NCBI GenBank assembly: GCA_009786175.1
Contig: WQTQ01000183.1
Span: 1-15,624 of the forward strand
DNA length: 15,624 nt
Source of the DNA: Bacillota bacterium
Lineage (GTDB): Bacteria; Bacillota_A; Clostridia; Lachnospirales; WQUN01
Reading direction: 5' to 3'
Position 1 is the first letter of the stretch. Each line of letters opens with the position of its first letter. Below the pieces are notes generated by a model that saw only the letters and a program-made list of their open reading frames with translations, was not told the DNA's origin and did no database searches. The position numbers were made by a program, and so were the translations under genes. Below, one piece after another: positions 3,927 to 15,624 of this stretch.

Positions 3927-4302
3927 AAGGTAAACCCAACTTTTTTTCCAATCTTTCAAACAGGCGTCTAACAGAATTGTTAATTTGCCAAAACGCGCCC
4001 TTACCTGTAAGCTGCGCTGTTGGGGTACGGGCTACAATAACAAAATCGTAACCTATGGCTTGTCCATCATGTAAAAGTAAACGGCAAGCCTCTTTAACCC
4101 ATCGCTTAATACGGTTACGTACTACTGCACAGCCTATTTTTTTGCTTACAGTTATGCCAATCCTGTTTTGATTAAGATCATTTGCCAGGGCGTAAGCTAC
4201 AAAAAAAGAATCTGCAGCGTACTTACCCTGGCTATAAACTTTTTTAAAGTCTTGATTTTTTTTAAGAGATAATATTTTTGTTGTCTTATGCAGACAGCAC
4301 AT
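3898..4302 (-). CDS. rnpA: Ribonuclease P protein component
   Basis: This 134-aa basic protein is the RNase P protein subunit, which binds the catalytic RNA and helps it recognise the 5' leader of precursor tRNAs. The family pattern is clear: [18 protein letters not shown] near the N-terminus, then [20 protein letters not shown] with the RNR motif at 62-64, then RWVKEACR. The protein is slightly longer than the usual 110-120 aa because of a tail after about residue 120 ([15 protein letters not shown]). ATG 4302 is the only plausible start: AGAGGT lies 5-6 nt upstream and no ATG, GTG or TTG follows before the conserved core. This start lies inside rpmH, giving a 17-nt out-of-frame overlap, so the Shine-Dalgarno site is itself L34 coding sequence. 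The 3' end overlaps yidD by 29 nt. Confidence 0.95.
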
Positions 4303-4423
4303 GTCTACCTCTTTGACGCCTTCTTCTCAAAACTTTACGGCCGTTAGATGTGCTCATGCGCTTACGGAAACCATGTTCTTTGCTGCGCTGCCTTTTTTTA
4401 GGCTGAAACGTCCTTTTGCTCAT
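4286..4423 (-). CDS. rpmH: 50S ribosomal protein L34
   Basis: This 45-aa protein reads [19 protein letters not shown], then [13 protein letters not shown] and a run of arginines ending RGRHVLSA. It is an almost exact L34 sequence with one extra residue (Ser2) compared with the usual MKRTFQPKK start. L34 is a small, very basic protein buried in 23S rRNA of the large subunit. The start at 4423 has a strong AAGGAAGGTGA Shine-Dalgarno site. It is the first gene of the leftward operon, behind a near-consensus promoter. The stop codon (TAA 4288-4286) lies 14 nt beyond the first base of the rnpA start codon. It is too short to show up in most length-filtered gene lists but is unambiguous. Confidence 0.97.
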
Positions 4424-4492
4424 TATGTCACCTTCCTTTAAATATAAATGGGCTTTACCCCAGTGTAATCTGATATTGACATTAGCTTTAGC

Positions 4493-4521
4493 ATTATATG
4501 CATTGATTCTATGTACGTCAA
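4493..4521 (-). promoter_or_regulatory. Sigma-A-type promoter of the rpmH-rnpA-yidD-yidC-jag-mnmE-mnmG operon
   Basis: On the minus strand the sequence has -35 TTGACG (4521-4516), a 17-nt spacer and a perfect -10 TATAAT (4498-4493). Transcription would start near 4486, giving a leader of about 63 nt before rpmH, which carries the L34 Shine-Dalgarno site. No other leftward promoter of this quality was seen in the interval, so it probably drives the whole minus-strand operon. It lies outside the main DnaA-box cluster. Confidence 0.8.
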
Positions 4522-4577
4522 TCCTTTCCTGTTTTTTATCTCGCTTTTCTTACTGAAAATTACTTGACACAGGTATT

Positions 4578-4706
4578 TGTGTGTAAAAATTGTTAATCTT
4601 ATGTACAAAAACTGTTGACATCGTATTGCTTATCCACAGCTAATTTGATATATTAGATAGGTGCCAAAAAAAGTTATACACAGCCTGTTGAAACTTGTGT
4701 GGATAA
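4578..4706. other. Upstream part of oriC: DnaA-box cluster in the rpmH-dnaA interval
   Basis: The 328-nt interval 4424-4751 between divergent rpmH and dnaA contains DnaA boxes. There is an exact TTATCCACA at 4630-4638 (+), an exact TTATACACA at 4674-4682 (+), and an inverted exact TGTGGATAA at 4698-4706. Weaker sites are TGTGTAAAA at 4580-4588 and TTATGTACA at 4599-4607. The three strong boxes lie within 77 nt, just upstream of dnaA, as in the bipartite origins of Bacillota. Besides helping build the initiation complex, these boxes overlap the region where the dnaA promoter must lie, which suits DnaA autoregulation. AT-rich sequence (4711-4730) follows the last box. The rest of the interval is the leftward promoter and unremarkable AT-rich DNA. 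Confidence 0.85.
4615..4644 (+). promoter_or_regulatory. dnaA: Candidate dnaA promoter with a DnaA box in its spacer
   Basis: An exact -35 TTGACA (4615-4620) is followed after 18 nt by GCTAAT (4639-4644), a 4-of-6 match to the -10 consensus. The exact DnaA box at 4630-4638 fills the spacer, so DnaA binding would block polymerase. An alternative is TTGAAA (4688-4693), 17 nt, TAGCAT (4711-4716), whose spacer also holds a DnaA box (4698-4706). Another TTGACA at 4564-4569 lacks a good -10. I cannot choose between them with certainty. Confidence 0.4.
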
Positions 4707-4736
4707 CTTTTAGCATTTTAATTAATTAAAACCAGC

Positions 4737-4754
4737 AAAGGAGAAATTGTAGTG
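4737..4754 (+). promoter_or_regulatory. dnaA: Shine-Dalgarno site that selects the GTG start of dnaA
   Basis: AAAGGAG (4737-4743) is 8 nt before GTG 4752-4754 and 14 nt before the in-frame ATG at 4758. The spacing favours GTG, which would make the protein begin Met-Asp-Met-His. Confidence 0.7.
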
Positions 4755-6315: not shown

Positions 6316-7443
6316 GTTATGACGCTCACTTGCGATAAACAACAATTACAAGATGCACTTGGTTTGGCAATACGCGCAGTATCGCCACGTACTACAATGC
6401 CCATTCTGGAATGTGTGCTGCTAAATGCAGAACAGGGAGTTGGGCTTACCCTTAGTGCAAGCAATTTGGAAATAAACATAGATACGGCACCTATTCCCGC
6501 AGAAACAAACATGTCCGGCTCAATAGCCCTTGACGCAAAGCTTTTTTCCGAAATAATAAGAAAAATGCCAGGGGAAGTTGTTTCTATAACCGTAGACGAA
6601 AAAAGTGACGTACAAGTAAAAAGCGGGCGTTCACGCCTTATGATACATGGGCAGCCCAGTGACGAGTTCCCCGTTATGTCGGAAAAAGAACTGATACCGG
6701 TAAATCAAGGGTATGTTTTAAAAGCTCAAACTCTTAAAGACATGATTCGTCAAACTATTTTTTCTGTTTCTACAGACCAAAGCAAGCTGGTATTAACCGG
6801 CGAACTTATAGAAGTAAAAGACAACACAATGCGCATGGTGGCATTGGATATGTACCGTATATCGTATAAGTGTACACCTTTGCCCGGAGACTGTACAGAC
6901 TCAAAAGCCATAGTACCGGCAAAAGCCCTTAACGAATTAAGCCGCATGTTATCATCTGATGAAAACGAAGAAGTAAACGTGCAGCTTACAGATAAGCGGA
7001 TTATATTTAAGGCAAGTAACTTTACGCTGACATCTAACCTTCTTGAAGGCGAATTTGTAAGGTATGATAAAATTTTTAACGAGGACTTCATTAGCATTGT
7101 TGAAATAAACCGTGCCGATTTGCTAAATGCCTTCGAACGTGCCATACTTGTGGCTACAGAGAATAAAACGCGTGCGGTAAAATTGGAAATAAGCGATGAC
7201 GATTTGATTATAAGTTGTTCCAGTGAACGTGGGGAAACAGAAGACGGTGTACCATGTAAAACAGACGGTAAGCCCTTAACAATCTCTTTTAACCCGCGCT
7301 ACTTTATAGAGGCTCTTAGGGCAGTGGAAGACGAAATAATAGTCTTAAAATTTAATACGCAGCTAAGCCCTTGTACCATCCGCAGCATAGAAGACGAAGC
7401 TGATTACAAATACCTGATTGTGCCCGTTAGAACAGAATCGTAA
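6313..7443 (+). CDS. dnaN: DNA polymerase III beta subunit (sliding clamp)
   Basis: From TTG 6313 the protein has 376 aa (374 from the ATG at 6319), the normal clamp size. The N-terminus reads MTLTCDKQQLQDALGLAIRA followed by VSPRTTMPILECVLL, the classic first-domain beta-clamp sequence. Three topologically equal domains of about 120 residues follow. The C-terminus carries FNPRYFIEALRAVEDEIIV and ends in APCT-like SPCTIRS and YLIVPVRTES, matching the family end (usually YLIMPVRL). The dimeric ring holds DNA polymerase III and many repair proteins on DNA through the cleft between domains 2 and 3. It lies downstream of dnaA and the unwinding region, and 9 nt upstream of recF. The open frame extends upstream to 6094, but that part is origin DNA with no homology to clamps and no Shine-Dalgarno site. 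Confidence 0.97.
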   Translation: MVMTLTCDKQQLQDALGLAIRAVSPRTTMPILECVLLNAEQGVGLTLSASNLEINIDTAPIPAETNMSGSIALDAKLFSEIIRKMPGEVVSITVDEKSDVQVKSGRSRLMIHGQPSDEFPVMSEKELIPVNQGYVLKAQTLKDMIRQTIFSVSTDQSKLVLTGELIEVKDNTMRMVALDMYRISYKCTPLPGDCTDSKAIVPAKALNELSRMLSSDENEEVNVQLTDKRIIFKASNFTLTSNLLEGEFVRYDKIFNEDFISIVEINRADLLNAFERAILVATENKTRAVKLEISDDDLIISCSSERGETEDGVPCKTDGKPLTISFNPRYFIEALRAVEDEIIVLKFNTQLSPCTIRSIEDEADYKYLIVPVRTES

Positions 7444-7452
7444 TTTTGCTGT

Positions 7453-8538
7453 ATGTGGATTAGTAATATTTCCGCCGCCGGGTTTCGCAATTTAAATATA
7501 TCAAATCAGCAACTTTCTTCGGGTGTAAATATTCTTCACGGTATGAACGCCCAAGGGAAAACCAGCTTTTTAGAAGCAATATATTTTTGCGCTTTTGGGC
7601 GTTCGTTACGGGCTGTGTCTGATAAGGAATTAATCCAATTTGGGCAAACCGCCGCCCATGTACGTGTAGATATAAACAGAGACGGATACACGTCTTTGCT
7701 GGATGCTCATATAGAGCGGGAAGGCTCAAAAACAAAAAAGGGTTTGGCACTAAATCATGTGCCTATAAAACATATGAAGGATCTGTTTGGTCGGCTTTTA
7801 ATTGTAATGTTTTCGCCGGAAGATTTGCGGCTGATAAAAGCGGGACCATATGAACGACGACGTTTTATGGATATGGAAATATGCCAACTTTCCCCCGTAT
7901 ACTACAGCGATTTAAAAGAATATTATCGCGCGTTAAAACAGCGGAATGCATTGCTTAAAATTTTGCAAAAAGACAAATCTCAGCAGGACAGTTTAAGTAT
8001 CTGGGACGAACAACTGGCCAACTATGGACAGCGTATTATGAAGCTGCGATCATCATTTGTAAAAAAAATAAACCGTATTGCCAAGGAAGTTCACTCAAAT
8101 ATAACCCAGGGTACAGAAAATTTGACATTAGCTTACGAGCCCAGTATTGTAAATATTGAAACATATTTAACCGGCCTTAGTAAATCTCATGTAAGGGACA
8201 TAGCGCAGGGCACTACAACCTTGGGAATACACAAAGATGATGTAAATTTTACAATAAACAATATTTCCGCAAGGTTTTTTGGCTCGCAAGGGCAACAACG
8301 TACAGCAGCATTATCCGCAAAACTTGCGGAAATTGAAATTATTAAGCAAAGCACCAATCAAACTCCAATATTACTCCTTGATGATGTACTTTCGGAGTTG
8401 GACGGAAACCGTCAACAATTTCTTCTGGAGCAGATAAAAAACTTACAAACCTTGGTAACGTGTACAGGGCTTGAAGATATACTTTTAACTATGAAAGACC
8501 ACAAAATTATGAAAATGGCAGAAGGGCGAATTAAGTAA
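7453..8538 (+). CDS. recF: DNA replication and repair protein RecF
   Basis: This 361-aa SMC-like ATPase matches RecF in length and motifs. Walker A is GMNAQGKT (30-37). The ABC-type signature is GSQGQQRTAAL (277-287), and Walker B is ILLLDDVLSELD (306-317). RecF acts with RecO and RecR to load RecA at single-strand gaps next to double-stranded DNA. The N-terminus WISNISAAGFRNL is typical. The start ATG 7453 follows the dnaN stop by 9 nt and has no visible Shine-Dalgarno site, so translation is probably coupled to dnaN. The S4-domain gene yaaA (rlbA), usually found between dnaN and recF in Bacillota, is missing: there is no room for it. A structured 105-nt gap separates recF from gyrB. Confidence 0.97.
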   Translation: MWISNISAAGFRNLNISNQQLSSGVNILHGMNAQGKTSFLEAIYFCAFGRSLRAVSDKELIQFGQTAAHVRVDINRDGYTSLLDAHIEREGSKTKKGLALNHVPIKHMKDLFGRLLIVMFSPEDLRLIKAGPYERRRFMDMEICQLSPVYYSDLKEYYRALKQRNALLKILQKDKSQQDSLSIWDEQLANYGQRIMKLRSSFVKKINRIAKEVHSNITQGTENLTLAYEPSIVNIETYLTGLSKSHVRDIAQGTTTLGIHKDDVNFTINNISARFFGSQGQQRTAALSAKLAEIEIIKQSTNQTPILLLDDVLSELDGNRQQFLLEQIKNLQTLVTCTGLEDILLTMKDHKIMKMAEGRIK

Positions 8539-8643: not shown

Positions 8644-10551
8644 ATGTCCCACCCTGAATATTCAGCAGAAAATATCCAAGTATTAGAAGGCCTGGAGGCG
8701 GTACGATTACGCCCGGGTATGTATGTCGGTTCCACTTGCGCTAAAGGTTTGCACCATTTGGTTTACGAAATAGTAGATAACTCTGTAGACGAAGCTTTGA
8801 TGGAGGCTTGTGACACAATTATTGTGCGTATTCACCCGGATAACAGTATTTCTGTACGTGATAACGGTCGTGGTATACCCGTTGGTATACAAGCACAAAC
8901 AGGTTTGCCTGCCGTAGAGGTTATTTTTACGACCTTGCATGCGGGCGGTAAATTTGGCTCTGGCGGGTACAAAACCAGCGGTGGTTTGCACGGTGTTGGT
9001 GCTGCGGCTGTAAATGCTCTTTCCGAATGGCTGCACGTTCAAGTTTATGATGGCGAAAAAATTCATGAAATCGAATTTTCCCGTGGCGAAAAAACAAAGG
9101 ATGTTACTGTAGTCGGTGATACGAATGAAAAGGGAACTTTAGTTCATTTTAAGCCGGACCCGGAAATGTTTGATGAATTGGTGTATAATTTTGATACCCT
9201 TAAGCAACGGCTGCAGGAAACAGCGTTTTTAACAAAGGGGCTCAAAATAGAGCTTATAGACGAACGCCGGGACCCTAATCGCACACGCTCGTATAAATAT
9301 GACGGCGGCATAAAAGAATTTGTTGCCCATATAAATAAAAATAAAACCCCCTTAACAGAAGAAATTTTTTACTGCGAGTCCATGTATGAAAACGTATTGG
9401 TGGAAATATCGCTGCAGTATACAGACAGTTTTCAGGAAAACACGTATGCCTTTGTAAATAATATTAATACAACAGATGGCGGAACTCATGTTACAGGATT
9501 TCGTGCCGGTATAACCAAAACAGTAAATGACTATGGCCGTAAGTTTAAATTGCTAAAAGACAGCGATAAAAATTTGTCCGGCGAAGACGTCAGAGAGGGT
9601 TTAACGGCAGTAATATCCATAAAGGTTGAAGACCCACAATTCGAAAGCCAAACAAAAGTAAAGCTTAACAACGACGAAGCCCGTACCGCAGTAGAAAGTG
9701 TTTTAAATGAACAGCTTGCATACTTCCTGGAAGAAAACCCGTCTGTTGGCAGAATTATAATAGAAAACAGTCTTATGGCGGCAAGAGCGCGTGAGGCAGC
9801 CAAAAAAGCGAGGGAGCTGGTAAAACGTAAATCCGTACTTGAAGGCGGACGTTTGCCTGGCAAGCTTTCAGATTGTTCGGAAAAAAACCCGGAACTTTGC
9901 GAAGTATTCATTGTAGAGGGTGACTCTGCGGGTGGCAGCGCGAAAAACGCCCGTTCCCCGCAGAATCAAGCTATTTTACCGTTGCGCGGTAAAATAATGA
10001 ACGTTGAAAAAGCCCGTCTTGACAAAATTCTTGGCAACGAGGAAATAAAAGCTATGATAACGGCTTTTGGTACGGGTATTCACGACGATTTTGACATAGC
10101 AAAATTACGTTACCATAAAATAGTTATTATGACAGACGCTGATGTTGACGGTTCTCATATCCGTACGCTTATGCTTACGTTTATGTACCGCTTTATGCCG
10201 GAACTTATTAGCGGCGGGTATGTATATATTGCACAGCCGCCGCTGTACAAGGTGGAAAAAGGCAAAAATGAATATTACGCTTACAGCGACGCGGAGCTGC
10301 AAAATATTTTGAATGAGATTGGCCGTGAAGGCATTAAACCAATTCAGCGTTATAAAGGCTTGGGTGAAATGGACGCAGATCAGCTTTGGGATACAACTAT
10401 GGACCCGGAAAGGCGTATTCTTTTGCGCGTGTCTTTAGATGACGCTATTGCAGCAGATTTAATTTTTACACAGCTAATGGGTGATAAGGTTGAACCGCGC
10501 CGGGAATTCATTCAAGAGTTTGCCACGCAGGTTAGAAATTTGGACGTTTAA
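8644..10551 (+). CDS. gyrB: DNA gyrase subunit B
   Basis: This 635-aa protein is a full-length GyrB of the short Gram-positive type without the proteobacterial insertion. The GHKL ATPase domain (about 1-220) shows [10 protein letters not shown] (42-51), DNGRGIPV (73-80) and [15 protein letters not shown] (113-127). The transducer domain follows (about 221-395). The TOPRIM domain has the catalytic EGDSAGGSA (425-433), [12 protein letters not shown] (446-457) and the metal-binding DADVDGSHI (498-506). The tail contains QRYKGLGEM (568-576) and [11 protein letters not shown]. Wording such as [20 protein letters not shown] is typical of Lachnospiraceae and relatives. GyrB pairs with GyrA to introduce negative supercoils. 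AAAGGAG lies 6 nt before the ATG. gyrA, the usual next gene, is not here; a terminator follows instead. The residues after the catalytic motif, KNARSPQNQ, deviate from the common QGRxRxxQ. Confidence 0.98.
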
Positions 10552-10587
10552 CGGTTAAATTTCTAAAATACTGATACCAATACCGGG

Positions 10588-10614
10588 AAAAGAGACTGAA
10601 AAGTCTCTTTTTTT
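10588..10614 (+). terminator. Rho-independent terminator of the dnaA-dnaN-recF-gyrB unit
   Basis: A perfect 10-bp stem AAAAGAGACT (10588-10597) / AGTCTCTTTT (10602-10611) closes on a GAAA tetraloop and runs into a U-tract ending at 10614. It lies 37 nt after the gyrB stop. It separates the replication genes from the permease genes. Confidence 0.92.
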
Positions 10615-10676
10615 ATGTGTTTTTAAGTTGAAAATATATAAAAAAGATGTATTTGCAGTCTGATTCGAAAAAATGT

Positions 10677-10730
10677 TATACAAAATATATGATTTTATTT
10701 AGTTTGCGTTGTGTGAACATATTTTGTATA
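10677..10730. promoter_or_regulatory. 12-bp perfect inverted repeat, candidate operator of the permease operon
   Basis: TATACAAAATAT (10677-10688) recurs inverted as ATATTTTGTATA (10719-10730), with a 30-nt spacer, so the arm centres are 42 bp apart (close to four helical turns). The right arm covers the first bases of the candidate -10 box at 10727-10732, so a protein bound there would block transcription. As RNA only the right arm end would be transcribed, so it acts at DNA level if at all. The rest of the 214-nt gyrB-permease gap is AT-rich with no gene. Confidence 0.6.
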
Positions 10731-10732
10731 GT
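10704..10732 (+). promoter_or_regulatory. Candidate promoter of the tandem permease genes
   Basis: TTGCGT (10704-10709), a 17-nt spacer and TATAGT (10727-10732) preceded by TTTTG make a plausible sigma-A promoter. Transcription would begin near 10739, leaving a short leader with GGGAG (10752-10756) 9 nt before the ATG at 10766. The upstream terminator at 10588-10614 makes a separate promoter necessary. Confidence 0.6.
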
Positions 10733-10765
10733 AACTCAATTTTACATAGTCGGGAGCGATAGACC

Positions 10766-13700
10766 ATGCTGTACAAAGTAAAAGAAAAGTCAAAAATAAC
10801 ACTTCCGGAAGAATTAATACATGATTGGCAATTAGAAGAAGGAGATAAAGTAGAAATAATATCCCATGAAGGCGGCGTGTTTGTGCGCCCTATCGCGTTG
10901 CTTTCTAAGGCCAGGTTTGAAAAAATCAACAACATAGTTAAAACTGGCGAAAACACCAGCTTTAAAAAGAAGCTGCTGAACTTTAAAAGCAATGTGTCGT
11001 TTAAAGCGGTTATACGGCAGCCCATACGCATGTTAATTTTTTTGCTGTTGGTAGGGTTGGCCACGTTTGGTTTTGTTTCCAGAGTGGTGGAATATGCCGT
11101 GTTGAGCCGCGAAATTAACAGAATAGAGCAATTTTACCGCACTGCCGGTACACTTGTGCCAATAGACCCTATCGGTTTCAATAATGTTTATGAAGCGGCT
11201 AACCTCTTGGCAAACAGTAACCTTATAGAGTTTCATGACAGGCGAACTGTTGTGCAGGGTGTAATGCATGGCCACGCAAGTGGTATGCGCGGTTTTGGTA
11301 CATTGGGCGGCAATATTTTTCAACGTGGAGAGCAGCGTTATTCTTATAAGGGATTATACCCCTTTGATACTTTTTTAATTGTTGAACTTGTTGGCTCAAT
11401 TCGGCGGCCGTTAAACCTCCCGGATATGAATGAAACGATTATAACAAACCGGATAACGTTAAGGCCTGTGCAAATTATTGCGGGACATGACCAGTTTCTG
11501 CCCGGCAGACGGTACATGGCAGACCTTTTGGTAGATGAAAACGGAAATTCCATTGCAAGTGGTTTAGTGCATGGGGGCCGTTATTTAATACGCGCCATGC
11601 GGCAGGACGCTTTAAGTAACACCATTGAAATTTTCCCGGTGATGGACGGTTTGTACTTTGTAAGCGTGGATGATAAAGAGGGTTTGGATAATGTATGGTC
11701 CACTCTTTCCCGTGAGCTTCATATTTTAGACGCTAATACAAATATGTTGATGCTGCAAGGTACAAAGGATATGACTACACTGCCCATGGTACAGTCCCAG
11801 GTAATTGAACGCAGGCGCGGACGGTTTTTAACATATAGCGATTACGCAAATGCTAACCATGTAATGGTTGTGCCGGAACGCCTGGCCCGTCTTTTGGGTG
11901 AAACGGTTACTTTAACCCTTAGGGATATGCGTACTTTTACAGACGGTTCGCCATTGCCGCCGGAAGACCACCACATGAGACACAGGTTAATCCCCGGTGT
12001 GGAAGGGCTTTGGAGAAACATGCCTGCCGGGTATTGGGTAAGTATTCCGCGGGATTATGAAGGTGCTTGGCGGCGTTACCCGACGGTGGAAATTGAAGTA
12101 ATGGTTGTAGGTACGTACTTTGTGTCCGATGCCTGGGGCTTGCCCCGTTGGGCGCACATACGTGACAGTTTTAGAAATATAGAAGTTTTTGTGCCTGCGT
12201 CAATTATCCCCGATGGTTTTGGTATTGTAGATGCCCACATAGTAAGCGGTGCATATAATTTTGTTCTCTCATCCCCAAGGGATCAAGCGGCTTTTTTGGT
12301 AAGGTACCGTGACAGGCTGGAGTATATGGGTTTTATGGTGCAGTTTTCCGGGGCAGACCCAACTAACTTTTGGCGTTCTGCCGGGCCTATACGCAACGCC
12401 ATACGGCTTAATTTGGCGTTATTTTCCGCCGTTTTGACTGTTGTCTTAGCTCTTACTGTATTTGTGTATTTGCGCCAGCGTTATAAGGAATTTGCCATTA
12501 TGCGGGCAATGGGTGTATCCGACGGCAATACAACTTGGCAGGTTATCGCGCCGGTGTTGGTGTTGTGGATTCCCATCGTAATTATTGCGAGTATAGCGGC
12601 ATGGCAGTTCGCGCTGGTACAGGTTGATACAGGCATGGAAGTTTTGGCGGAAATTGATGTGCCTTACGATACCGCCGAAGAGTATACGCCCATGAATATC
12701 CTTCAAATGATGAGGTATGAAGCGGAACGTGCTGCCATGGAAATATTTCAGTTGTTTAGCGTACCGCAGATTATTTTGCTGTGTGCGGCGTTGGCTGCGG
12801 CCTGGATTGCCGCTGTGTTTATTGGTGTGCGTTTTTTTGCGGGGCAGTCTATGATACTTCTGCTGCAAAGTGCCCAAGGCAGCGCACCTGTACGTATGGC
12901 TAAGGAAACCGCGCCGCCAAAGGCGGTAAAAATTTCTGACGTATTTTTGTTTAAGCCAATTGTGCTAAGTTTTGAAGGCAGGGTAAGGTCACGCATACGC
13001 CATCATTGGCGGCATATACTGCGCGCGCCGGTTAAATCTGTGCTGGTGGTTGGTATGGCGTTGTTGTTTGTGGCGGCGTTGGGCTGGCTGGACAGGACAA
13101 TTACCGTTACGGAAAGCGAAATTGTACGGCTGCACGCCACCACCGTAATTACAGGCGAAGTTGTAGAAATTGGTGCGGGTGCGGACGGAGATAATTTACA
13201 TGGTCACCATATTCCATGGGGTACCCTTGACATATTGCGTGACAGCGGTTTTGTAGAGGATTACTACTTTACCACGCTTCATCAGTTTTCGGTGTTCCCA
13301 TATATATCTTTACCGCCCGGTATAATTCTTGACAGGAATATGTTTATCAGAAGTGGCTTAACGCCCCCGCCGGAGCCTATTTTGGACTTTGTAAAGGGTA
13401 TTAGTTGTTGGGACACATTTGTGTATAAAAGTTCAAGGCCTACGGCGTTTGGTGTAGGGCGTGGCGGAGAGTTTACAGTCACATTTGCCCCGGGGTACAG
13501 CGAGGCGGATTTTGTACCTGTTCCCCCCGGTGCAATGCTTAACGTCATTGTCCATGAGTCGTTGATGGAGCGGGATTTGTTAGTGTATAGGGGCGGTTTG
13601 ATAAACTATAGGCCCAACCACGCAGGGGCGCGATATTTAATAGAGCAAAGGCTATCCCTTGGGGATACGGCGTACTTTGGTGTTTCATGGTCTCCAAACA

Positions 13701-14305
13701 ACAGACCCGTAAGAATAATCGGTGTGTACAGCGGCGGCCACCCGCGAAGCGCGTACCATATGGGGCAGGGCTTGATATTAAGGCCAATGCTAATAGAAAG
13801 CGATATTGCGTCCCTTACCTTCACCGTTTATCAAGACAAAGTTATGTATTTGAATGACTTTGAACAGGAAATGGCATTGCAGCTGACCGGTTCTAATCAC
13901 AGAGTTATATTAAACGACGCGGAACTTAGGCTGGTTGTGGCACCACTGGAAGATAACCTTAACCTGCTGCGGATGTTGTACCCCGTAATGACGGGCCTTA
14001 GCTTTGTGCTTGCCCTTGGACTTAACTTGCTGCTTATGCTGCAAAATGCCAAAAACGCTGCAATATTGCGGGTACTTGGTATGCCGCGTCATAAAACCAG
14101 GTCAAACCTGTGTATGGAATTGTTGACTATGTCTGTTGCGGGTGTTATCGTCGGGTTTATGTCTGTGCCGGTTATGGGTGTTGCAATAGGCACAGTTGGG
14201 GTGATAGCCGGCATATATTTGGCCGGCGCGGTTATGGGTACCGTTGCCGGGGTTATGGTTATCAGCCAAAAAGTACCAATGGAATTATTGCAGGTAAGAG
14301 AATAA
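10766..14305 (+). CDS. Large FtsX/MacB-type ABC permease-like protein with N-terminal AbrB-like domain
   Basis: This 1179-aa protein begins with an AbrB/MazE-type swapped-hairpin domain (about 1-44; KVKEKSKITLPEELI, then LEEGDKVEII and GGVFVRPI), a fold that usually dimerises and binds DNA. A basic linker (45-83) follows. The rest has two FtsX-like halves. Half 1: membrane segment about 88-106, an ectodomain of about 440 residues (107-547), then segments about 548-570, 593-616 and 668-690, with the coupling loop KEFAIMRAMGVSDG (574-587). Half 2: segment about 756-774, ectodomain 775-1068, then segments about 1071-1093, 1118-1137 and 1141-1166, with NAAILRVLGMPRHK. The C-terminus QKVPMELLQVRE is FtsX-like. 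Such permeases need a separate ABC ATPase and move lipids, lipoproteins or peptides, or transmit force; the substrate is unknown. None of the ectodomain resembles a domain I recognise. No ATPase gene is visible. A paralogue follows 42 nt downstream. Confidence 0.85.
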   Translation: MLYKVKEKSKITLPEELIHDWQLEEGDKVEIISHEGGVFVRPIALLSKARFEKINNIVKTGENTSFKKKLLNFKSNVSFKAVIRQPIRMLIFLLLVGLATFGFVSRVVEYAVLSREINRIEQFYRTAGTLVPIDPIGFNNVYEAANLLANSNLIEFHDRRTVVQGVMHGHASGMRGFGTLGGNIFQRGEQRYSYKGLYPFDTFLIVELVGSIRRPLNLPDMNETIITNRITLRPVQIIAGHDQFLPGRRYMADLLVDENGNSIASGLVHGGRYLIRAMRQDALSNTIEIFPVMDGLYFVSVDDKEGLDNVWSTLSRELHILDANTNMLMLQGTKDMTTLPMVQSQVIERRRGRFLTYSDYANANHVMVVPERLARLLGETVTLTLRDMRTFTDGSPLPPEDHHMRHRLIPGVEGLWRNMPAGYWVSIPRDYEGAWRRYPTVEIEVMVVGTYFVSDAWGLPRWAHIRDSFRNIEVFVPASIIPDGFGIVDAHIVSGAYNFVLSSPRDQAAFLVRYRDRLEYMGFMVQFSGADPTNFWRSAGPIRNAIRLNLALFSAVLTVVLALTVFVYLRQRYKEFAIMRAMGVSDGNTTWQVIAPVLVLWIPIVIIASIAAWQFALVQVDTGMEVLAEIDVPYDTAEEYTPMNILQMMRYEAERAAMEIFQLFSVPQIILLCAALAAAWIAAVFIGVRFFAGQSMILLLQSAQGSAPVRMAKETAPPKAVKISDVFLFKPIVLSFEGRVRSRIRHHWRHILRAPVKSVLVVGMALLFVAALGWLDRTITVTESEIVRLHATTVITGEVVEIGAGADGDNLHGHHIPWGTLDILRDSGFVEDYYFTTLHQFSVFPYISLPPGIILDRNMFIRSGLTPPPEPILDFVKGISCWDTFVYKSSRPTAFGVGRGGEFTVTFAPGYSEADFVPVPPGAMLNVIVHESLMERDLLVYRGGLINYRPNHAGARYLIEQRLSLGDTAYFGVSWSPNNRPVRIIGVYSGGHPRSAYHMGQGLILRPMLIESDIASLTFTVYQDKVMYLNDFEQEMALQLTGSNHRVILNDAELRLVVAPLEDNLNLLRMLYPVMTGLSFVLALGLNLLLMLQNAKNAAILRVLGMPRHKTRSNLCMELLTMSVAGVIVGFMSVPVMGVAIGTVGVIAGIYLAGAVMGTVAGVMVISQKVPMELLQVRE

Positions 14306-14310
14306 AAACA

Positions 14311-14326
14311 CCCCTGATATCAGGGG
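14311..14326. repeat. 16-bp perfect palindrome between the two permease genes
   Basis: CCCCTGATATCAGGGG lies 5 nt after the first permease stop and 7 nt before the AGGAG of the second. On the plus strand it is followed by GGTAAAATA, with no U-tract, so it should not terminate rightward transcription efficiently. As RNA it can form a 6-bp G/C-rich stem with an ATAT loop and may stabilise or separate the two cistrons. On the minus strand the same hairpin is followed by TGTTTTTATT, which looks like a terminator for leftward transcripts. Confidence 0.65.
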
Positions 14327-14347: not shown

Positions 14348-15624
14348 ATGCAACGACAAATCCCGTTTATATCATCAATACGCCAGCCGCTTCGCACGCT
14401 TATTTTTATACTGCTTGTGGGCTTGGCCTCTTTTGGATTTGTTTCACGGGCGGTAGAGTACATTATTTTAAACCGGGAAATTACCAGAATAGAAAGATTT
14501 TACCGCACTACGGGTACATTGGTTCCTATAGACGTTACCGCACCAAATAATGTATACGAGGCGGCACAGCTTCTGGAGGGCAGCCCGTTAATAGAGTTCC
14601 ATGACAGGCGGGCAATTGTACAGGGTTTTATGAATGACAGGCCTAACGCCGTCAGCGGCTTCCGTACAGTTGGCGGCAATATTTTTCAGCGTGGCCAGCC
14701 GCCTTTTGATTATAAGGGCTTATTCCCCTTTGATACAATCGCGGTTATAGAGGTGCAGGGGATTATGAGACGGCCTTTGCGGCTGAGCAATAATGACATT
14801 GAAACGGATAGGATAACCGTGCGGCCCCAAGAAATTCTTTTTGGCCATGAGCAGTTTATGCCCGTTAGGCGGTATATGGCGGACTTGCTGGTAAATGAAG
14901 ACGGCGTTTCCATAGGGCAGGGTTTACGTATGGGCGGCCATTACTTGGTGCGCGCTTCCCGTCAGTCACGGACTTGTAATACCATAGAAATTTTCCCGTT
15001 AGTGGATGACATATATTTTGTATGTATGAACGACCGGGATAAACTGCGGGAAGTAATGAACGCCCTTGCCAGGGAATTGGCGGGCATAGAGCAGAACACA
15101 AACATGGTTATGATAACCGGTACAAAAGATATGACCGCGCTGCCAATGGTGCAAAACAGGGCCATAATGCCCGCTATGGGCCGCTTTGTAACCTACGAAG
15201 ACTATGTTAATGCCAACCCGGTTATTGTTATCCCGTGGCGTATGTACAGCCCAAGGTTTAATTCCCAAATTGGCGATACGTTAACAATAACATTGCGGGA
15301 CATGCGCACATTTACAGATGGCGCACCTTTCCCGCCGCCGGGCCATTATTACGCCGCGCGGCTGCCCGTGGGGATAGAAGCCCACTGGGCAAACATGCCC
15401 GCAGGCTACTGGACCAGCATACCCCGGGATTATACGGGTAACTGGCGCAACTACCCGACAATGGAAATAGAACTGGAAATTGTGGGCACATACAGGACTT
15501 GGGAGATGCCCCGCTGGGTTCACATTTCCGACAGTTTTCAGAATATGGAAGTGTTTATACCCGCGTCGGTTATACCGGAAGGGTTTGGCATAGTGGATAT
15601 GCACCTTGTGTCCGGCGCGTACAG
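14348..15624 (+). CDS. Second FtsX/MacB-type permease-like protein, paralogue lacking the AbrB-like domain (N-terminal part)
   Basis: Partial: 425 codons are visible before the window ends. ATG 14348 has AGGAG (14334-14338) 9 nt upstream. The protein opens MQRQIPFISSIRQPLRTLIF and goes straight into the first membrane segment (about 16-34), so it has no counterpart to the first 72 residues of the upstream gene. From there it aligns with the upstream protein without large gaps: 61 of 82 residues are identical in the stretch from RQPLRT to IVQG. Shared ectodomain landmarks include FYRTTGTLVPID, LIEFHDRR, GGNIFQRG, GTKDMTALPMVQ, LRDMRTFTDG and NMPAGYWTSIPRDY. It therefore arose by tandem duplication and has diverged. 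By analogy the full protein should be about 1100 aa with two FtsX-like halves. It probably shares the upstream promoter. The substrate is unknown, and a shared ATPase may lie further downstream. Confidence 0.85.
   Translation, partial: MQRQIPFISSIRQPLRTLIFILLVGLASFGFVSRAVEYIILNREITRIERFYRTTGTLVPIDVTAPNNVYEAAQLLEGSPLIEFHDRRAIVQGFMNDRPNAVSGFRTVGGNIFQRGQPPFDYKGLFPFDTIAVIEVQGIMRRPLRLSNNDIETDRITVRPQEILFGHEQFMPVRRYMADLLVNEDGVSIGQGLRMGGHYLVRASRQSRTCNTIEIFPLVDDIYFVCMNDRDKLREVMNALARELAGIEQNTNMVMITGTKDMTALPMVQNRAIMPAMGRFVTYEDYVNANPVIVIPWRMYSPRFNSQIGDTLTITLRDMRTFTDGAPFPPPGHYYAARLPVGIEAHWANMPAGYWTSIPRDYTGNWRNYPTMEIELEIVGTYRTWEMPRWVHISDSFQNMEVFIPASVIPEGFGIVDMHLVSGAY

What the first reader, a model, noticed from the sequence alone, without database searches (positions are those of the whole stretch)
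10766..11015. AbrB/MazE-like domain fused to the cytoplasmic N-terminus of an ABC permease
Residues 1-44 have the AbrB swapped-hairpin pattern (KSKITLPEELI, LEEGDKVEII, GGVFVRPI), followed in frame by a basic linker and an FtsX-type first membrane segment. FtsX-type permeases have cytosolic N-termini, so the domain would sit on the inner face. It could tether DNA to the membrane, act as a transporter-linked regulator, or have been reused as a dimerisation module. I do not know of a described membrane-anchored AbrB of this architecture.
Basis: partly seen in the sequence, partly recalled or inferred. Interest (0 to 1): 0.75.

Follow-up and report, generated by a model that had tools for sequence, protein, structure and literature searches.

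The report
Antitoxin-type domain on an ABC permease
In one lineage of bacteria a small DNA-binding and pairing domain, of the kind used by bacterial antitoxins, has been joined to the inner end of a large membrane transporter protein and kept there, probably reused to pair the proteins rather than to read DNA.

Summary
ORF 10766-14305 (+, 1179 aa) is one open frame. Residues 1-44 are an AbrB/MazE-type domain: Pfam PF04014 scores 26.7 bits on residues 1-50 (cut-off 24.7) and 38.5 bits on a full-length homologue. Confident PDB fold matches are AbrB, SpoVT, MazE and an archaeal AbrB-like protein. A helix (48-60) and a fast-changing basic linker lead to TM1 of an 8-TM duplicated FtsX-type (type VII ABC, YbbP-like) permease.

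The fusion is no assembly accident: three more metagenomic proteins (55-64% identical) keep it, and the four form one supported clade. All 25 other homologues with a readable N-terminus start just before TM1, as does the tandem paralogue at 14348. No fusion appeared in 38 family or 392 order genomes searched.

New here: the closest stand-alone relatives of domain plus helix are ~90-aa AbrB antitoxins beside YafQ/RelE-like toxins, and an internal Met in two of the four marks the old permease start.

The fold core and helix are conserved; the stretch holding the DNA-facing loop is shortened in two of four. I therefore favour reuse as a pairing module (0.45). Autoregulation through a 12-bp inverted repeat upstream stays open (0.25).

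The parts
10585..10614 (+). intrinsic terminator after gyrB, separating it from the fusion gene
   Evidence: 13 pairs then T run
10677..10688 (+). left arm of a 12-bp perfect inverted repeat TATACAAAATAT, candidate operator
   Evidence: 1 of 1000 dinucleotide shuffles of 10616-10765 reaches 12 bp; noticed after the fact
10719..10730 (+). right arm of the same inverted repeat; arm centres 42 bp apart; overlaps TATAGT at 10727-10732, a possible -10 (my reading; not reported by the scan)
10766..14305 (+). fusion gene: AbrB-type domain + 8-TM duplicated FtsX-type ABC permease, 1179 aa
10766..10897 (+). residues 1-44: AbrB/MazE-type swapped-hairpin domain
10907..10945 (+). residues 48-60: helix after the domain, shared with stand-alone antitoxins; residues 45-58 are 77% identical on average among the four fusions
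10946..10999 (+). residues 61-78: low-confidence, basic, fast-changing linker (26% mean identity over 59-78)
11000..11134 (+). residues 79-123: TM1 of the permease and its extension
11135..12385 (+). residues 124-540: first large extracytoplasmic domain
   Evidence: topology by analogy with YbbP
12386..12865 (+). residues 541-700: TM2-TM4, first FtsX module
13001..13135 (+). residues 746-790: TM5, start of second FtsX module
13136..13915 (+). residues 791-1050: second large extracytoplasmic domain
13916..14302 (+). residues 1051-1179: TM6-TM8, second FtsX module
   Evidence: TM6 and TM7 also by hydropathy
14348..15622 (+). tandem paralogue (425 aa seen, runs off the window) without the AbrB domain, starting MQRQIPFISSIRQP

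Best explanation
An AbrB-type antitoxin gene, of a kind paired with a YafQ/RelE-like toxin, was fused once in front of a complete FtsX-type permease gene of a tandem array. It lost its C-terminal (by analogy toxin-binding) tail and its toxin. The domain and its helix were kept as a cytosolic self-association module. One permease chain is probably a whole type VII transporter (two FtsX modules, like YbbP), so a swapped-hairpin AbrB dimer would tie two transporters together, or tie one to another AbrB protein, through a flexible linker below TM1. Shown: the fusion, its conservation, its single clade, the kinship with antitoxins, absence of tail and of an adjacent toxin gene. Inferred: dimerisation, its role, and that DNA binding is no longer the selected function.
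For: The fusion is kept in 4 proteins down to 55% identity, one clade with support 100/97. Mean pairwise identity among the four: domain 49.5%, helix 77%, linker 26%, TM1 74%, second extracytoplasmic domain 48%. Invariant in all four: P14, G26-E30, G36-G37, R41-P42, A44-K48, F51, K53-I54, N56-I57, i.e. fold core plus helix. The stretch before P14 (beta1, loop, beta2) is two residues shorter in P0003 and P0004, the aligner placing the gap at different spots. Of 15 loci with stand-alone matches to the domain, 12 have a YafQ/RelE-like ORF beside them (L056-L065, L091, L092), two of the weaker ones a PIN-like ORF (L093, L094), one neither seen (L095). Fusion scar: 21 of 25 unfused homologues start with Met exactly 13 residues before the conserved Pro; P0002 and P0004 have an internal Met there. 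Whole-model fold search: YbbAP first, a single-chain pseudosymmetric permease with two ATPases.
Against: No dimer was modelled or measured. Only four sequences, of which P0002 and P0004 are sisters. The domain's 49.5% identity is lower than most of the permease. P0001 and P0002 keep a lysine-bearing loop that could still bind DNA. Loss of the basic residue after P14 is shared with the three closest antitoxins. Net charge before the GD motif is -1 to -2 in the fusions, but one antitoxin (L091) is also -2. No ATPase gene lies in the window.
Confidence: 0.45

Rival explanations
1. Membrane-anchored autoregulator: the domain still binds DNA and represses its own promoter through the inverted repeat, so that the permease is both transporter and regulator of its operon.
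For: A 12-bp perfect inverted repeat with arm centres 42 bp apart (about four helical turns) ends 35 bases before the start codon; 1 of 1000 shuffles reaches 12 bp, and of 207 half-overlapping 150-bp tiles of the window this is the only one with such a repeat. MazE, of the same fold, represses its own operon (PMC4803016, passages). P0001 keeps K4, K6, K8, K10.
Against: The repeat was noticed after the fact and the stretch is 73% A+T. The stretch before P14 is shortened in two of four fusions. No DNA of the other three fusions could be read. The motif GAAATTC/GAATTTC seen before 7 of 11 antitoxin genes is absent here, but it is absent before the three closest antitoxins too, so this weighs little.
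Confidence: 0.25
2. Evolutionary remnant or mild stabiliser without a specific role, tolerated because the N-terminus is flexible.
For: All 25 other homologues with a readable N-terminus do without it; the paralogue next door lacks it; restricted distribution.
Against: Persistence across 35-45% sequence divergence, 77% identity of the helix and invariant core residues while the linker has drifted to 26%.
Confidence: 0.15
3. Docking site: the domain forms mixed swapped dimers with stand-alone AbrB proteins, or holds a toxin, and so recruits them to the membrane.
Against: The antitoxins' C-terminal part is replaced by the linker. No toxin ORF next to the gene. No partner evidence.
Confidence: 0.08
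4. Assembly or frameshift artefact joining two genes.
For: Metagenomic sequence; no reads available.
Against: Same junction architecture in three other contigs (lengths 6,259, 71,738 and 49,090) at 55-64% identity.
Confidence: 0.02

Closest known systems
AbrB/MazE-type antitoxins paired with YafQ/RelE-like toxins (stand-alone, in relatives: L056-L065, L091, L092)
   Same: Same domain and following helix; 27-42% identity of nine of them to residues 1-65 of the window protein; PF04014 over the cut-off in the three scanned (L057, L058, L059)
   Different: About 90 aa, no membrane part, with a C-terminal tail and an adjacent toxin ORF; the fusion has neither
YbbAP of E. coli (type VII ABC transporter, PMC12646458)
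   Same: Single-chain permease with two FtsX modules and two large extracytoplasmic domains; best whole-model match (9ge7, E 5.3e-10)
   Different: YbbP has 10 TM helices and, as far as I know, no AbrB domain; our model has 8; 10% identity over the alignment, TM-score 0.24 by query length
MacB, LolCE, BceB (type VII ABC permeases)
   Same: FtsX-type permease with large extracytoplasmic domain
   Different: No AbrB domain (recalled); MacB and LolCE are two-chain dimers
AbrB and SpoVT of Bacillus, MazE of E. coli
   Same: Swapped-hairpin fold; top PDB matches of the N-terminal model
   Different: Soluble regulators, not part of a transporter
Membrane-anchored one-component regulators such as ToxR and CadC (recalled, no call)
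   Same: A DNA-binding-type domain cytosolic to a membrane segment
   Different: Winged-helix domain and single TM, not a transporter, and DNA binding is shown there but not here

Membership tests
AbrB/MazE/SpoVT domain superfamily | PF04014 score over the curated cut-off | tested here: met
   26.7 bits on residues 1-50 (cut-off 24.7); 27.4, 27.4 and 44.6 bits on the N-terminal pieces of P0003, P0004, P0002; whole-protein scores pass only in P0002 (38.5), not in P0001, P0003, P0004
AbrB/MazE/SpoVT domain superfamily | beta-alpha-beta-beta swapped-hairpin fold | tested here: met
AbrB/MazE/SpoVT domain superfamily | homodimer | not testable with these tools
   only single chains can be predicted here
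AbrB/MazE/SpoVT domain superfamily | DNA binding | not testable with these tools
   sequence pointers conflict: loop stretch full length in two, shortened in two
Type II antitoxin | adjacent cognate toxin gene | tested here: not met
   neighbours are gyrB and a permease paralogue
Type II antitoxin | C-terminal toxin-binding tail | tested here: not met
   the C-terminal part of the stand-alone relatives is replaced by the linker to TM1; its toxin-binding role is inferred
FtsX/MacB-type (type VII) ABC permease | FtsX permease domain | tested here: met
   PF02687 40.3 bits, cut-off 25.5, two stretches
FtsX/MacB-type (type VII) ABC permease | fold with large extracytoplasmic domain between TM1 and TM2 of each module | tested here: met
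   model pLDDT 73.4; YbbAP, MacB, LolCDE, BceAB among the top 16 in Foldseek, with low whole-model TM-scores (0.13-0.24 by query length) and some RND pumps at lower probability further down
FtsX/MacB-type (type VII) ABC permease | partner ATPase | tested here: inconclusive
   none in the window, which ends inside the paralogue; in relatives an ATPase ORF (judged by eye) follows in 9 of 12 loci and in L001

The most novel reading that the evidence does not exclude
A transporter that is its own membrane-bound transcriptional regulator: the antitoxin-derived domain on the permease binds the 12-bp inverted repeat at its own promoter, so that transport state or membrane insertion (transertion) feeds back on the operon next to the replication origin.
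Probability: 0.17. Interest if true: 0.85.

Novelty: new variant of a known kind. Interest (0 to 1): 0.5.

Why it matters
It shows a toxin-antitoxin DNA-binding domain captured by an unrelated membrane machine and retained under constraint, with the parent family, the fusion scar and the unfused paralogues all visible, so the route from addiction module to transporter part can be tested. I know of no type VII ABC permease with a cytosolic pairing or DNA-binding domain; if the domain pairs transporters or reads DNA, it adds a control layer to this family. Standard annotation misses it: three of four fusions fall under Pfam's whole-protein cut-off.

Tried and rejected
Own genome: none held. Genome contigs and viral contigs with the N-terminal alignment found no relative. 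Genome contigs with the full alignment found one 30% relative. Region searches for other fusions: residues 1-80 of P0001 returned only itself, P0003 and P0004 of 53 candidates (P0002 missed, so sensitivity is limited); residues 1-90 of P0002 returned only itself and P0004 of 48 candidates. In the order-wide search at most 8 candidates a genome were scored and only E <= 1e-10 was listed. A possible decayed fusion in G070 (match to model columns 23-171 across two TAA) was read and shows no AbrB remnant upstream. An operator like that of the stand-alone antitoxins was sought upstream and not found. Rfam on 10500-10900: four matches, all far under gathering scores. Charge and the residue after P14 were compared and are not decisive. 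Solved-structure sequence searches gave weak hits only, best AbrB-type at E 0.2 for the window and 0.006 for P0002. Literature: the rows shown (titles and abstract starts) held no paper on an AbrB-permease fusion; of PMC2701414, PMC12646458, PMC4022651 and PMC4803016 I saw passages only.

Full report
Observation. The ORF at 10766-14305 (+) reads through 1179 codons without a stop. Residues 1-50 match Pfam PF04014 (MazE_antitoxin) at 26.7 bits against a cut-off of 24.7; the whole protein scores 20.4, under the cut-off, which would explain why annotation misses it. FtsX PF02687 matches at 40.3 bits in two stretches.

Is it more than chance or an artefact? A search of 5.8 billion proteins returned 32 proteins including the query (only the 7995 candidates sharing most words were scored). 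Three of the other 31 (P0002, P0003, P0004; 64, 60, 55% identical, contigs of three different lengths) carry the domain in frame. P0002 passes the Pfam cut-off as a whole protein (38.5 bits), and the N-terminal pieces of P0003 and P0004 pass at 27.4 bits each. Twenty-five of the 31 start directly before TM1; the other three (P0021, P0023, P0029) lack that stretch, so nothing can be said of their N-termini. The four fusions form one clade, support 100/97, with P0005 and the window's second permease (14348-15622) next to it. One fusion event is the simplest reading.

Origin of the domain. A model of the fusions' first 200 residues was run over 38 genomes of the family of G001, the genome of the Defluviitaleaceae MAG contig L001. 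GyrB places the window's organism near this family: 74-76% identity to the six members tried, 65-68% to full-length GyrB of other genomes of the order (19 genomes). Of 36 matches, 22 are permease ORFs matching from column 56 on, 14 are ORFs of 91-193 aa matching within columns 1-62, and none spans both. In 392 genomes drawn from the order, 25 match at 1e-10 and none shows the fusion; the one row that reached upstream (G070) is spurious. Fifteen loci with stand-alone matches were fetched (L056-L065, L091-L095). Twelve have a YafQ/RelE-like ORF directly beside the AbrB ORF, including the best-matching ones; two weaker ones (L093, L094) have a PIN-like ORF; in L095 I saw neither (by eye). Of five of the YafQ/RelE-like ORFs scanned, one passes the Pfam cut-offs (L058: YafQ 34.5 bits, ParE 29.2), the rest match more weakly; of four scanned against NCBIfam, L058 passes RelE_StbE and L061 has no match. 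AbrB-RelE pairs are a known toxin-antitoxin kind (PMC2701414, passages).

Fusion scar. In 21 of 25 unfused homologues the start Met lies exactly 13 residues before the conserved Pro ahead of TM1. P0002 and P0004, sisters in the tree, have an internal Met at that very position; P0001 has Phe and P0003 Ser. This suggests that the antitoxin frame ran into a complete permease gene. In the window no internal start with a convincing ribosome site separates the parts, so I expect one polypeptide.

What is conserved. Mean pairwise identity among the four: residues 1-44 49.5%, 45-58 77%, 59-78 26%, TM1 74%, first extracytoplasmic domain 63%, second 48%. Domain and helix are held, the linker is free. 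Invariant positions mark the fold core (P14, GDKVE, GG, RP) and the helix. DNA-facing residues lie around beta1-beta2 in AbrB and MazE (R8, R15, R23, R24 of AbrB proposed, PMC4022651; W9, N11, R16 of MazE, PMC4803016). That stretch is two residues shorter in P0003 and P0004. Against over-reading this: R15A of AbrB still binds DNA (PMC4022651); the missing Lys/Arg after P14 is also missing in the three closest antitoxins; and net charge before GD is -2, -2, -1, -2 against a mean of +1.1 in 11 antitoxins, one of which is also -2.

Upstream region. After the gyrB terminator lies a perfect 12-bp inverted repeat, 10677-10688 and 10719-10730, arm centres 42 bp apart. One of 1000 dinucleotide shuffles of 10616-10765 reaches 12 bp. 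It was found by looking, so this is not a clean probability. The motif found before 7 of 11 antitoxin genes is not there, but neither is it before the three closest antitoxins.

Mechanism. Best supported: the antitoxin's pairing half was reused to associate permease chains, or whole transporters, on the cytosolic side (0.45). Autoregulation through the inverted repeat is the boldest open reading (0.25 as a rival; 0.17 with coupling to transport or membrane insertion). A remnant without function is less likely given the constraint. Nothing here measures dimerisation, DNA binding or transport.

Context. In relatives the permease is followed by an ABC ATPase ORF (by eye) in 9 of 12 loci read (one of the other three ends about 300 bases after the permease) and in L001, so an ATPase is to be expected beyond the window.

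Noticed in passing
14311-14326: A perfect 16-nt palindrome CCCCTGATATCAGGGG lies between the two tandem permease genes, ahead of a good ribosome site.
   Followed up: no
4424-4751: Probable replication origin: three of the window's four TTATNCACA boxes lie at 4630, 4674 and 4698, between the rpmH-like ORF (4286-4423) and dnaA (box pattern recalled).
   Followed up: partly
7443-7453: dnaN and recF are nearly adjacent, without the S4-domain gene often found between them in Bacillota (gene order recalled).
   Followed up: no
L066 6261-13009, L073 6898-13547: In two relatives' loci the large permeases come in tandem pairs with one ATPase ORF after the second gene.
   Followed up: partly
L058, L060-L065 upstream of antitoxin genes: GAAATTC/GAATTTC lies 27-41 bases before 7 of 11 AbrB antitoxin genes, in several within AGTnnGAAATTCnnACTT-like symmetry, a likely operator.
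   Followed up: partly
L001 7294-10029: Upstream of the relative's permease lie a peptidase-like ORF and a lipoprotein-like ORF with RCC1-type repeats (by eye).
   Followed up: no
L092 3091-3585: An AbrB-like stretch follows a RelE-like stretch in one 164-aa ORF, just before a YafQ-like ORF (by eye).
   Followed up: no
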